DNA from: Planctomycetota bacterium
GTDB taxonomy: Bacteria; Planctomycetota; Planctomycetia; Gemmatales; Gemmataceae
NCBI GenBank assembly: GCA_016191165.1
Contig: JACPPF010000039.1
Coordinates: 1-64,000 of the forward strand
Direction of reading: 5' to 3'
DNA length: 64,000 nucleotides
The notes beneath the pieces were generated by a model. It made no database searches. It was not told the DNA's origin and was given only the letters and a program-made list of their open reading frames with translations. Positions within the stretch are counted from its first letter, which is position 1. The number at the start of each line of letters is the position of its first letter. Below, piece by piece: positions 56,981 to 63,850 of the stretch. Position numbers and translations under genes: made by a program.

Positions 56981-57074
56981 ACGCCACAATCAGGGTAATC
57001 CCGATTACAATGGGCGTGCGGCACGACCATAATTATTGCAATCATTTCCGCATTTCAATTTTCCGGAGTCAGTC
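56981..57074. repeat. Cassette 5' repeat (shared leader), copy 1
   Basis: ccacaatcagggtaatcccgattacaatgggcgtgcggcacgaccataattattgcaatcatttccgcatttcaattttccggagtcagtc; near-identical copies at about 59697-59790 and 62311-62404. Confidence 0.85.
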
Positions 57075-57947
57075 ATGGGGACCTCCCGCTGGATTCTGCG
57101 ATTCGCTGGCACGCTGCTGCTTGCAGCGGCTGCGCTCAAGGCGTGGGGGCTAGAGCCTATGGCGCGCCTGGGCGTTCTTTCGACCGCCGAAGCGCAGCTG
57201 ACGATCATCGCCTTGGAACTTTTCCTCGGTCTGTGGCTCTGGATCGGCGCGGGGCGGGCGAATGCGCTCGGCCCCTGGCTACTCGCGGTTCTAACTTTCG
57301 CCATCTTTGCGTGCGTGACTTTCTATCTCGGCTGGGTCGGCCAATCGTCTTGCGGGTGTTTGGGGCGCTATTCGCCGAATCCCTGGTACGCGTTCGGCCT
57401 GGACGTGTGCGTGCTGGCGGGTTTGGTCATGGGCTGTCCTGACTGGAAATTGCTGCGAAATCACCCGCGCACGCTCCTGAGCAATACCAAGTTTCCCGCC
57501 CCGTGCGGACTGATCGCCGTGCTGTTGTCGGGCGCCATATCCGGTTTGGCCTGGGGCAGTTTTGGTTCGGTCGGGGCTGCGCTCGCCCATTTTCGCGGCG
57601 AACGCCTTTCGATTCATCCCCGGCTCGTCGATGCCGGCGCGGCGCCGAGCGGCGACGGCCGGGAAGTACGCATCGCGTTGACCAACTGGACCGAGCAACC
57701 GATCAACCTGATCGGCGGCACGTCCGATTGCGCTTGCACGGTCCTCGGCGATCTGCCCGTCACCATTCCCGCCGGTGAGACGGCGACGGTTGCCGTGAAC
57801 CTTCACTTTTCGGGTAGGCCGGGTTTGTTCACGCGGCAGGCGGCTTTTCTAATCGACGATCAAGGCTTCAAAGCAATCAGCTTCACCATCACGGGTCGCA
57901 TACTCGAAAGAACGGAAAACTCCGACGAGGCCGGCGGCGCGCCGTAG
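57075..57947 (+). CDS. Cassette gene a, copy 1: MauE/DoxX-like membrane protein with C-terminal DUF1573-like domain
   Basis: Four-TM N-terminus, GWVGQSSCGCLGRYSPNPWYAFGLD (CGC motif), then LTNWTEQPINLIGGTSDCACTVLGDLPVTIPAGETATVAVNLHFSGRPGLFTRQAAFLIDD. Confidence 0.82.
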   Translation: MGTSRWILRFAGTLLLAAAALKAWGLEPMARLGVLSTAEAQLTIIALELFLGLWLWIGAGRANALGPWLLAVLTFAIFACVTFYLGWVGQSSCGCLGRYSPNPWYAFGLDVCVLAGLVMGCPDWKLLRNHPRTLLSNTKFPAPCGLIAVLLSGAISGLAWGSFGSVGAALAHFRGERLSIHPRLVDAGAAPSGDGREVRIALTNWTEQPINLIGGTSDCACTVLGDLPVTIPAGETATVAVNLHFSGRPGLFTRQAAFLIDDQGFKAISFTITGRILERTENSDEAGGAP

Positions 57948-57990
57948 CGTGTTGCGGACCACGTCATTCCATTGACGAAGGGAGACTGCA

Positions 57991-58479
57991 ATGAAAGCCA
58001 AATTGGAAGAGTTCGCCTCGGTTTTCTTCAGCGCGCTGGGCATCGCGTTCGTGGCGCTGGGCATCCTGGTCGTGCCCGCGGATGCGTTTGCCGCTTACAA
58101 CGGCGAATGCGTCAATTGCAAAAACTCGCCAACTCGTCCACAATGCGCGTCGGATTGCTGTTCGACGTTCAAGGACGACCTCACGGCGAGGTGCCAATGC
58201 TGTAACGATGCCTGCGGTGATGACGCGGCGTGTCTGAAACGCTGCACCGAGGAGGCGTGCGGCAACGATCCTGAATGCCAGGCAAATCGCGCTTTCGGTG
58301 GTCCGTGTGTTGCGGCTTCCATCTGCGACACAGGTTGTGCGTTTCTGCCCATCGCGACCTGCCCCGAGCGAAAGATTTTGTGCAACGCAATCCCGTTGCC
58401 GCCGAATTCACCGACGGGCTGTACCGGGTGCGTATGCAGCGAGAATCCCGTAACAAAGGCGTGCAATTGTGTTCCATGA
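57991..58479 (+). CDS. Cassette gene b, copy 1: exported cysteine-rich protein
   Basis: Hydrophobic signal ...FFSALGIAFVALGILVVPADAFA then AYNGECVNCKNSPTRPQCASDCCSTFKDDLTARCQCCNDACGDDAACLKRC...; about 23 Cys. Confidence 0.8.
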   Translation: MKAKLEEFASVFFSALGIAFVALGILVVPADAFAAYNGECVNCKNSPTRPQCASDCCSTFKDDLTARCQCCNDACGDDAACLKRCTEEACGNDPECQANRAFGGPCVAASICDTGCAFLPIATCPERKILCNAIPLPPNSPTGCTGCVCSENPVTKACNCVP

Positions 58480-58626
58480 CCAGCGAGCGTCGCCACTTAC
58501 CCAACGCGCCGATCGCGATGGACTTTCCCCATGACTGGCGTTCATTCGGCGCGATGACACCGGGGCGCCTTTGCTGCAAAACGGTGGAGATAATCTTCGA
58601 TTCGATGTCTCAACGTTTGGTGAAAT

Positions 58627-62328: not shown

Positions 62329-62404
62329 CCCCGATTGCAATGGGCGTGCGGCGCGACCATAATTACTACCATCATTTCCGCTTTTCAGTTTTCCGGAGTC
62401 AGTC
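62311..62404. repeat. Cassette 5' repeat, copy 3
   Basis: acaatcagggtaaccccgattgcaatgggcgtgcggcgcgaccataattactaccatcatttccgcttttcagttttccggagtcagtc. Confidence 0.82.
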
Positions 62405-63283
62405 ATGGGGACCTCCCGCTGGATCATGCGGTCCGTGGGCTCGCTGCTGTTGGCGGCCGCCGCGCTCAAGGCGTGGGGGCTAGAGCCTATGGCGCGCCTG
62501 GGCGTTCTTTCGACCGCCGAAGCGCAGCTGACGATCATCGCCTTGGAACTTTTCCTCGGTCTGTGGCTCTGGATCGGCGCGGGGGGGGGGGCGAAGGCGC
62601 TCGGCCCCTGGCTACTTGCGGTTCTAACTTTCACCGTCTTTGCGTGCGTGACTTTCTATCTCGGCTGGGTCGGCCAATCGTCTTGCGGATGTTTGGGCCG
62701 CTACTCGCCGAACCCCTGGTACGCGTTCGGTCTGGACGTCATCGTTCTGGCGGCGCTGCTGGTGGGCCGGCCTGACCTGACGGCGCTGCGTACAAGTCCG
62801 CGTGCTTCGCTGGCGGCGAATGCCTATCCGGGAGCGTGCGGATTGGGGAGCGTGACGCTCTTGACTCTGTTGCTTGCGCTTCTGCCCACGCTGGGCTACG
62901 GTCCCGTGGAGCAAATCATCGCCAACCTGCGCGGCCAGCGCGTCACCATTCAGCCCAGCCTGGCCCAAGTTGAACCCGGCGCCCCGGGCCAGCAGCGAGA
63001 AATCACGGTCGAGATCGCCAACTGGACCGACGCACCGATTCGCCTGATCGGCGGCGCCACGGATTGCTCCTGCACCGTACTCCATGATTTGCCGATCACC
63101 ATTGCTCCCAACGAAACCCGCAGCGTCGCGGTCCGCATCGCCCTTTCGGGCCAACCTGGAATCTTCACGCGCAAGGCGGCCTTTCTCGTGGACGATCAGG
63201 GTTTCAAGGAGATCGGCTTCACGATGACGGGCCGCATACTGAAAAATTCTCAACCTCGAGACATTGCCGGCGGAGCACGTTAG
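62405..63283 (+). CDS. Cassette gene a, copy 3: MauE/DoxX-like + DUF1573-like membrane protein
   Basis: Same architecture as copy 1; in frame through an 11-G tract (WIGAGGGAKALGPWLL); ATDCSCTVLHDLPITIAPNETRSVAVRIALSGQPGIFTRKAAFLVDD. Confidence 0.82.
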   Translation: MGTSRWIMRSVGSLLLAAAALKAWGLEPMARLGVLSTAEAQLTIIALELFLGLWLWIGAGGGAKALGPWLLAVLTFTVFACVTFYLGWVGQSSCGCLGRYSPNPWYAFGLDVIVLAALLVGRPDLTALRTSPRASLAANAYPGACGLGSVTLLTLLLALLPTLGYGPVEQIIANLRGQRVTIQPSLAQVEPGAPGQQREITVEIANWTDAPIRLIGGATDCSCTVLHDLPITIAPNETRSVAVRIALSGQPGIFTRKAAFLVDDQGFKEIGFTMTGRILKNSQPRDIAGGAR

Positions 63284-63319
63284 CTTCGCGACATTTCACT
63301 CTTCAACAAGGAGACAGTC

Positions 63320-63850
63320 ATGGCCAAGCTCGATGCATTGCTGGCGTGGTTTTTCACGTCGCTGGGTTACGCACTGGTGGGATTCGCGATCTTGATTGTG
63401 CCCGCGGATGCCTTTGCCGCTTACAACGGCGAATGCGTCAACTGCCAGAATTCGTCCACCCCGTCCCAATGTGCTTCCGATTGTTGCTCGACGTTCAAGG
63501 ACGACCTGGCGGCGCGGTGCCAATGCTGCAACAACGCTTGCGGCGATGACGCGGAATGTTTGAAGCGTTGTGCCGAGGAGGCGTGCGGGGGTGATGTGGA
63601 ATGTGCGGTGAATTGCCTTCAGGAAAAGGGGAAACAATGCATCACCGACAAGAAAATGGACCTGACCTGCAATGGACCCGATTGTAACACCCTCGGCGTT
63701 CCGCCGATGGGGACCGTTTGCGTGTCTGCCGACCTCGATCCCATGAAATTCAAATGCTTAACCACGAAACTTTGTGACGCATGCAAGTGCGGAGTTCGCG
63801 ATGTGATGATTGGCGAAGTCAAGGCGAAAATCTGCATCTGTTGGAAATAG
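63320..63850 (+). CDS. Cassette gene b, copy 3: exported cysteine-rich protein
   Basis: ...IVPADAFAAYNGECVNCQNSSTPSQCASDCCSTFKDDLAARCQCCNNACGDDAECLKRCAEEACGGDVECAVNC; about 24 Cys. Confidence 0.8.
   Translation: MAKLDALLAWFFTSLGYALVGFAILIVPADAFAAYNGECVNCQNSSTPSQCASDCCSTFKDDLAARCQCCNNACGDDAECLKRCAEEACGGDVECAVNCLQEKGKQCITDKKMDLTCNGPDCNTLGVPPMGTVCVSADLDPMKFKCLTTKLCDACKCGVRDVMIGEVKAKICICWK

What the first reader, a model, noticed from the sequence alone, without database searches (positions are those of the whole stretch)
56981..63850. Tandemly repeated three-gene cassette: MauE-like/DUF1573 membrane protein, Cys-rich exported protein, C-terminally anchored exported protein
Seen: gene order a-b-c, a-b-c, a-b, with a-gene starts at 57075, 59791 and 62405 (spacing about 2.6-2.7 kb) and a near-identical leader of about 95 bp before each a gene. 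Known: MauE, a DoxX-like membrane protein, is needed with MauD to mature the disulfide-rich small subunit of methylamine dehydrogenase. Inference: each a protein, with a CGC motif in the membrane part and a CxC in the DUF1573-like part, may be a dedicated oxidative-folding or metal-handling factor for its neighbouring Cys-rich b protein, with c as an anchored partner. No mauA/mauB/mauD or methylamine genes are visible nearby, so this would not be classical methylamine utilisation.
Basis: partly seen in the sequence, partly recalled or inferred. Interest (0 to 1): 0.88.

Follow-up and report, generated by a model that had tools for sequence, protein, structure and literature searches.

The report
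Switchable redox gene cassettes in planctomycetes
A bacterium of the planctomycete order Gemmatales carries about a dozen copies of a small operon for exported, cysteine-rich proteins, and most copies start with a run of one repeated base that can slip in length and so probably switches that copy on or off, a trick well known in pathogens but, as far as we could find, not reported in planctomycetes.

Summary
The tandem a-b-c, a-b-c, a-b arrangement is real and is not an assembly duplicate: conserved blocks are 86-92% identical, variable blocks 41-60%. Two points were missed. First, the middle a gene is not intact: a run of nine G at 59973-59981 throws it out of frame (8 or 11 G would keep it in frame); copy 3 has 11 G and is in frame, and copy 1 has an interrupted GGGGCGGG. 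Second, the array runs on past the window, and about ten related cassettes lie elsewhere in this Gemmatales genome. Eight of the ten a genes with a 5' end that were found by homology carry a homopolymer of 9-13 nt there, against five in 157 kb of background. Some tracts lie early in the coding sequence; others sit between -35 and -10 boxes, as in TTGACA-N5-G13-TATACT. Two congeners whose promoter and a gene are 99-100% identical differ by T11 versus T14 in that spacer, and have unrelated b-c genes. The operon often continues with a DUF1573-like protein (e) carrying an in-frame UGA plus a conserved hairpin (predicted selenoprotein) and a DUF1559 pre-pilin. Best reading: phase-variable cassettes making variable, oxidatively folded exported proteins. 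Switching, redox chemistry and targets are untested.

The parts
56980..57074 (+). conserved leader of cassette 1
   Evidence: 92% / 91% identical to leaders 2 / 3
57075..57947 (+). a1: 290 aa, MauE-like 4-TM domain (CGCLG) + DUF1573-like domain (CAC); intact
   Evidence: AlphaFold model of paralogue a3 pLDDT 80, helical part then Ig-like beta domain
57251..57258 (+). GGGGCGGG: interrupted tract in a1, in frame ('locked' version of the slippery site)
   Evidence: sequence; compare
57991..58479 (+). b1: 162 aa exported Cys-rich protein, C-terminal CxxCxC..CxC signature
   Evidence: no Pfam or NCBIfam hit
58627..59679 (+). c1: 350 aa, signal peptide, variable LolA-fold ectodomain, conserved EPxG..RWYLW-TM-RRR tail
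   Evidence: fold from model of c2
59692..59790 (+). conserved leader of cassette 2
59791..60670 (+). a2: out of frame (two overlapping ORFs) because of G9; full-length 292/293 aa with G8 or G11
59973..59981 (+). G9 tract inside a2 (predicted OFF)
60716..61210 (+). b2: 164 aa Cys-rich exported protein
61255..62328 (+). c2: 357 aa anchored LolA-fold protein
   Evidence: model pLDDT 87, PDB hits LolA / LolB / RseB / LprG
62310..62404 (+). conserved leader of cassette 3 (overlaps the end of c2)
62405..63283 (+). a3: 292 aa, intact
62581..62591 (+). G11 tract inside a3 (in frame, predicted ON; G9, G10, G12, G13 would be OFF)
63320..63850 (+). b3: 176 aa Cys-rich exported protein; the array continues on contig C176 beyond the window with c3 (from 64050), e3 predicted selenoprotein (65111-65548), truncated a4, b4, c4, e4

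Best explanation
These are phase-variable operons for a diversifying, exported, disulfide-rich protein. Switching: replication slippage in a homopolymer changes its length by one or more bases. Where the tract is early in a (near the start or after the first or second TM helix) it shifts the frame, so a is ON or OFF; where it lies between the -35 and -10 boxes it changes spacer length and so transcription of the whole operon. With about a dozen copies, cells in a population would express different subsets. Product: b is secreted, with a conserved N-terminal half and a variable C-terminal half; c is a membrane-anchored LolA-fold partner with a highly variable ectodomain; d, where present, is a DUF1559 pre-pilin. 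Chemistry: a is a membrane thiol oxidoreductase (MauE-like CGC plus DUF1573 CxC) which, with the Sec-containing DUF1573-like protein e where present, forms or reshuffles the disulfides of b. Shown by sequence: tracts, frames, promoter boxes, a length difference between congeners, cassette variability, UGA plus hairpin, operon conservation. Inferred: switching within a clone, oxidative folding of b by a, surface display.
For: Tracts: of 10 a genes with a 5' end that were found by homology in this genome, 8 have a tract >=9 nt within 250 nt of the start, against 5 in 157 kb of background. These represent about six independent origins with different bases and positions; expected 0.16. In 105 Gemmatales genomes searched, 11 tracts >=9 nt fall in 36.9 kb of a 5' regions against 3 in 195 kb elsewhere, Fisher p 4e-7. 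Promoter boxes flank tracts: C114 TTGACA-TTTCA-G13-TATACT; C177 TTGACG..T11..TATGTT; C155 TTGAAA..A..TAAGAT; other genera TTGACA-GGGAC-G11-TAATGT (L163) and TTGACA-AAGC-G10-TAATCT (L199). Congeners SKYG129 and SKYB77: promoter + a 99-100% identical, T11 versus T14 in the spacer, b-c unrelated. Frames: a2 G9 OFF, a3 G11 ON; C115 G11 OFF; L218 G13 OFF, L104 C12 ON. b C-half and c ectodomain vary while tails stay. Redox: invariant CGCxG; e with UGA at a Cys-aligned site and a hairpin 12-13 nt downstream in 9 genes, two pairs with compensatory change; tRNA-Sec and SelA present. a-c link: fusion at C21.
Against: No reads or clonal isolates were available, so switching itself is unobserved; exact tract lengths in a draft assembly may be off by one. 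Not every a gene has a tract (most relatives do not). Frameshifts in C26 (+2 nt) and C46 are outside tracts, and some relatives are plain pseudogenes, so gene decay also occurs. Coding-region tracts switch a alone unless translation is polar. No test of a acting on b; no solved thiol oxidoreductase came up for a by sequence or fold. The window's MauE scores are just below Pfam's cut-off. The e gene is absent after cassettes 1 and 2 in the window. Surface exposure is inferred.
Confidence: 0.62

Rival explanations
1. An oxidative-maturation operon only: a folds b; homopolymers are incidental and the broken a copies are pseudogenes of a birth-and-death family.
For: Conserved a-b neighbourhood, invariant CGC, selenoprotein e; some a copies are broken outside tracts (C26, C46; L103, L116, L181).
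Against: Tracts are strongly enriched at a 5' ends in independent genera, with different bases, and flanked by promoter boxes; T11/T14 is nearly the only change in an otherwise near-identical kilobase.
Confidence: 0.14
2. A competition or RiPP-like system: b is a secreted Cys-rich antimicrobial or signalling peptide precursor, a its disulfide-forming enzyme, and phase variation limits cost or self-harm.
For: mauE homologues occur in candidate RiPP clusters (PMC7794033); b is small, exported, Cys-rich and hypervariable.
Against: No protease/ABC exporter or immunity gene was recognised in the cassettes; c is a LolA-fold protein and d a pre-pilin, pointing to the envelope.
Confidence: 0.12
3. Part of a type IV pilus / type II secretion pseudopilus: cassettes supply variable minor pilins (d) and tip or cap proteins (b, c) with a disulfide-forming helper (a).
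For: DUF1559 pre-pilin with H-X9-DG ends the operon in many genomes; in Phycisphaerae-type genomes (L147-L149) a MauE-like CGC protein sits inside a GspE-GspF-pseudopilin operon.
Against: The window cassettes 1-2 lack d; the genome has 44 DUF1559 matches, most away from a. Compatible with the best explanation rather than exclusive.
Confidence: 0.25
4. Metal-binding system: b is a metallothionein-like or copper/zinc-binding protein and a and c handle the metal.
For: Very high Cys content with CxC and CxxC pairs.
Against: b is exported and has no metal-family hit; hypervariability between copies is unlike a metal site; a Sec-containing DUF1573-like partner fits redox better.
Confidence: 0.06
5. 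Assembly artefact or sequencing error creates the repeats and frameshift.
For: Draft genome of 183 contigs; homopolymers are error-prone.
Against: Copies differ by 8-14% even in their best-conserved blocks and by about half in variable ones; the same features appear in independently sequenced genomes; long intact ORFs across the window argue against general indel error.
Confidence: 0.03

Closest known systems
Simple-sequence contingency loci, e.g. Neisseria meningitidis porA (spacing between -10 and -35), opc (poly-C promoter) and hmbR (in-frame poly-G) (references in PMC5084427)
   Same: Homopolymer in a promoter spacer or 5' coding region of an exported-protein gene; length change alters spacing or frame; several loci switch independently.
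   Different: In planctomycetes, at the head of a multi-gene redox/envelope operon; G, C, T or A tracts; no experimental switching yet.
MauE of methylamine utilisation (PF07291)
   Same: Four-TM DoxX-like domain with conserved Cys; MauE has been suggested to form disulfides in the beta subunit of methylamine dehydrogenase (PMC7794033 citing van der Palen 1997).
   Different: Fused to a DUF1573-like domain, multi-copy, tract-bearing, neighbour is an unrelated Cys-rich protein; window copies score just below the Pfam cut-off.
DUF1573 (PF07610) and its selenoprotein relatives (NCBIfam NF041425 OS_HP2)
   Same: Ig-like fold, CxC or Sec-containing motif.
   Different: e proteins give no hit to NF041425 or, in the own genome, to PF07610, so they are a divergent set; a combines the domain with MauE.
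LolA / LolB / RseB / LprG superfamily
   Same: Predicted fold of c.
   Different: c has a C-terminal TM anchor with an invariant EP motif and a highly variable ectodomain; no sequence-level hit.
DUF1559 / SBP_bac_10 pre-pilins of planctomycetes (PF07596, TIGR04294)
   Same: Gene d is a clear member.
   Different: Here linked to a, b, c; DUF1559 is the largest paralogue group of Planctopirus limnophila and of unknown function (PMC10632474).

Membership tests
Phase-variable contingency locus | hypermutable-type repeat at promoter spacer or 5' coding region, more often than chance | tested here: met
Phase-variable contingency locus | length change alters reading frame or promoter spacing | tested here: met
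   (a2, a3 for G6-G14); spacers 14-19 nt
Phase-variable contingency locus | tract length differs between close relatives | tested here: met
   T11 vs T14 in otherwise near-identical promoters; one pair only
Phase-variable contingency locus | reversible switching within a clone, with changed expression | not testable with these tools
   no reads or cultures
MauE (PF07291) | profile score above Pfam cut-off (27 bits) | tested here: not met
   window copies 22.5 and 23.3 bits; six paralogous matches in the same genome pass
MauE (PF07291) | conserved Cys pair in the membrane domain | tested here: met
   CGCxG invariant in 16 homologues
DUF1573 (PF07610) | profile score above cut-off (26.1 bits) | tested here: inconclusive
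   a1 29.0 and a2 30.9 pass, a3 22.8 does not
Methylamine utilisation (mau) system | mauA/mauB/mauD nearby | not tested
   not searched by HMM; none recognised in the conserved operon
LolA superfamily (c) | fold match to solved members | tested here: met
   9tp6_B E 4e-6, prob 1.0, TMt 0.52; 3buu, LolB, RseB, LprG follow
LolA superfamily (c) | sequence-profile hit | tested here: not met
   no LolA-type Pfam or NCBIfam hit
PEP-CTERM / exosortase substrate (c) | PEP-CTERM profile hit | tested here: not met
   no NCBIfam hit, although the tail is EPxG-TM-RRR and two exosortases are in the genome
DUF1559 pre-pilin (d) | PF07596 and H-X9-DG motif | tested here: met
   132.7 and 31.1 bits
Selenoprotein (e) | in-frame UGA at a site aligned with Cys in homologues | tested here: met
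   9 genes; Cys versions in L128, L141
Selenoprotein (e) | SECIS-type hairpin just after UGA | tested here: met
   5-6 bp stem 12-13 nt after UGA in all nine, 94% of cells paired against 22-41% for slid controls; SelB binding untested
Selenoprotein (e) | Sec machinery in the genome | tested here: met
   tRNA-Sec TCA, SelA E 6e-142
OS_HP2 (seleno)protein (NF041425) | NCBIfam match | tested here: not met
   e proteins no hit

The most novel reading that the evidence does not exclude
Planctomycetes of the order Gemmatales run a combinatorial phase-variation system: up to about a dozen independently switching operons, each with its own variable Cys-rich exported protein and LolA-fold partner, matured by a dedicated MauE-DUF1573 enzyme and, in some, a DUF1573-like selenoprotein, and delivered with a DUF1559 pilus-like subunit. 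It would be the first contingency-locus surface system in this phylum and a function for part of the DUF1559 expansion.
Probability: 0.4. Interest if true: 0.88.

Novelty: new variant of a known kind. Interest (0 to 1): 0.74.

Why it matters
Phase variation by homopolymer slippage is best known from host-adapted pathogens. Finding it at the head of a repeated, diversifying envelope operon in environmental planctomycetes would imply strong, fluctuating selection on their surface (phages, predators, attachment). It would also give testable roles to several orphan families at once: MauE-DUF1573 fusions, a new Cys-rich exported family, an anchored LolA-fold family, a Sec-containing DUF1573-like protein and the DUF1559 pre-pilins that dominate planctomycete genomes.

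Tried and rejected
G9 runs as such are not in excess in the window by a dinucleotide model (1.08 expected per 64 kb, 4 overlapping matches seen); the signal is their place, not their number. Other long tracts were inspected: hairpin repeats (C44, C122, inside ValRS on C145), the junk end of C77, and unclear ones (C79, C89, C129, C160) are not cassette-linked. C114 and C21 were found through their tracts or weak hits, so the conservative count leaves them out; the C21 tract belongs to a surface-protein-type leader in front of the MauE/c-like fusion. L104 and probably L105 tracts are coding, not promoter. The UGA in b on C34 lies in the signal peptide and looks like a mutation, not Sec. Exosortase anchoring of c was considered; profile test not met. 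Membership of e in OS_HP2: not met. No solved structure was matched by a above noise in sequence; its fold search hit mostly Ig/ASH-like domains, matching the DUF1573 part. Rfam found nothing real in the array. Papers: no relevant hit for planctomycete phase variation or for MauE with DUF1573 in the held library; subscription papers are not covered.
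Full report
What is there. The repeated cassette a-b-c, a-b-c, a-b is present at the stated coordinates. Copies share a 95-bp leader (86-92% identity) and the N-terminal membrane part of a (88-92%), while the second half of a (58-60% against copy 3), the C-terminal half of b (41-50%) and the c ectodomain (44%) differ strongly; the c tail is again 80% identical. 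This mosaic rules out assembly duplicates and suggests gene conversion of the conserved blocks with diversification of the exposed ones. The window is contig C176 of a 7.2-Mb draft genome. The array continues with c3, e3, a 5'-truncated a4, b4, c4 and e4.

The middle a gene is broken by a G tract. Copy 1 reads GGGGCGGG, copy 2 G9, copy 3 G11 at the same place, just after the second hydrophobic helix. Copy 2 is out of frame at G9 and full-length at G8, G11 or G14; copy 3 is in frame at G8, G11 or G14.

Homopolymers mark the family. Searching the own genome for a, b and c gave further cassettes or parts on C21, C26, C34, C46, C60, C94, C115, C136, C155 and C177, and the tract search added C114. 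Tracts: C26 C11, C60 C10, C94 C8 (homologous promoters), C46 G12, C177 T11, C155 T10 and A13, C114 G13, C115 G11 in the coding region. In the background of 157 kb there are five runs of 9 or more and none of 11 or more. Of ten a genes with a 5' end that were found by homology alone, eight have such a run within 250 nt of the start; counting related promoters once gives about six independent cases where 0.16 would be expected. The base differs (G, C, T, A) and the place differs (promoter or coding), so common descent does not explain them all.

Promoter tracts lie between recognisable boxes. C114: TTGACA-TTTCA-G13-TATACT, spacer 18; C177 TTGACG-18-TATGTT; C155 TTGAAA-16-TAAGAT; C46 TTGCAA-19-TAATAT; most score better than flank shuffles at p<0.05. 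In other genera: TTGACA-GGGAC-G11-TAATGT (L163) and TTGACA-AAGC-G10-TAATCT (L199). In the congeneric MAGs SKYG129 and SKYB77 the promoter and the a gene are 99-100% identical over a kilobase; the spacer is T11 in one and T14 in the other, and b and c downstream are unrelated. This is the most direct sign of slippage and of cassette replacement.

Breadth. A profile of a finds members in 43 of 105 genomes of the order; this genome has the most. In the fetched loci, 11 runs of 9 or more fall in 36.9 kb of a 5' regions against 3 in 195 kb elsewhere. A Cys-rich ORF follows a in 37 of 53 cases; 19 end with a strict CxxCxC..CxC signature. The operon commonly continues c-(e)-d, d being a DUF1559 pre-pilin with the H-X9-DG motif. 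Named loci include Gemmata sp. IIL30, Gemmataceae, Fimbriiglobus, Limnoglobus and Pirellulaceae MAGs. In Phycisphaerae-type genomes a MauE-like CGC protein sits within a GspE-GspF-pseudopilin operon.

What the proteins are. a: MauE-like membrane part (Pfam scores 22.5-23.3 bits in the window, below the 27-bit cut-off, while six paralogous matches pass) and DUF1573-like part (29.0, 30.9 and 22.8 bits against 26.1); CGCxG is invariant and the second Cys of CxC nearly so. b: no known family; five database relatives; N-half conserved, C-half variable, C-terminal Cys signature kept. c: model with pLDDT 87 whose best PDB matches are LolA, LolB, RseB and LprG; tail F.L(S/T).FG..EP.G..-TM-RRR. It resembles a sorting signal, and two exosortases are present, but no PEP-CTERM profile matched. 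A natural fusion of a MauE domain with a c-like region and TM anchor (C21, 490 aa) links a and c; the c-like part of the fusion was judged by eye.

A predicted selenoprotein in the operon. Gene e, a small single-TM DUF1573-like protein after c, carries an in-frame TGA in all four copies of this genome and in L126, L132, L136, L138 and L143, at a site that is Cys in L128 and L141. A 5-6 bp hairpin with a GGUCU/GGUUC/AGUUC-type loop begins 12-13 nt after the UGA in all nine; 94% of pair cells are paired against 22-41% for slid controls, with two pairs showing compensatory change. The genome has tRNA-Sec (TCA) and SelA. e does not match the known OS_HP2 selenoprotein model. e is not present in the window itself, but follows cassettes 3 and 4 on the same contig.

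Mechanism. Shown: tract positions, frames, spacers, one length difference between congeners, cassette variability, the UGA-hairpin signature. Inferred: that slippage switches a or the whole operon; that a, aided by e where present, forms disulfides in b; that b, c and d act at the envelope. MauE's suggested role in disulfide formation is taken from PMC7794033, which cites van der Palen 1997. The precedent for spacer-length and poly-G switching is listed in PMC5084427. No paper in the held library was found that reports phase variation in planctomycetes or discusses MauE with DUF1573.

Verdict. Confidence is higher for phase variability (about 0.8) than for a acting on b (about 0.55).

Noticed in passing
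G000 C138:43606 (L101 4566-6722), C45:440 (L089), C20:462 (L095): Large putative surface proteins with a related leader and an ERLEDR-type motif have a G10-G13 tract inside the leader: C138 in frame (ON), C20 and C45 out of frame (OFF). Looks like a second, translational phase-variation family in the same genome.
   Followed up: partly
L088 (C38) around 3212 and 8947: Two paralogous genes with a poly-C tract near the start (C11 predicted OFF, C10 predicted ON), each upstream of a small exported-looking ORF and a DUF1559 pre-pilin.
   Followed up: partly
L147, L148, L149 at about 5896-6855: In Phycisphaerae-type genomes a MauE-like CGC protein lies between GspF and a string of pseudopilin genes, suggesting a wider link of MauE-like proteins with type II secretion / pili.
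   Followed up: no
G000 C21:109993-111465 (L087 3994-5466): 490-aa fusion of a MauE domain with a c-like region and C-terminal TM, followed by a DUF1559 gene.
   Followed up: partly
L047 11482-11919, 8612-9049; L048 7688-8137; L056 minus strand; L126, L132, L136, L138, L143: Nine small DUF1573-like genes with in-frame UGA and SECIS-type hairpin: a candidate selenoprotein family not matched by NCBIfam.
   Followed up: yes
L211 / L212 (G032): Paralogous a genes with C8 after the first TM helix, one in frame, one out of frame and with an extra stop.
   Followed up: partly
window 55501-55884: ORF resembling a PIN-domain toxin (VapC-like), just upstream of the array region; identified by eye only.
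   Followed up: no
L093 4676-4686 (C145:105675): G11 within a G/C-rich insert inside valyl-tRNA synthetase that keeps the frame.
   Followed up: no
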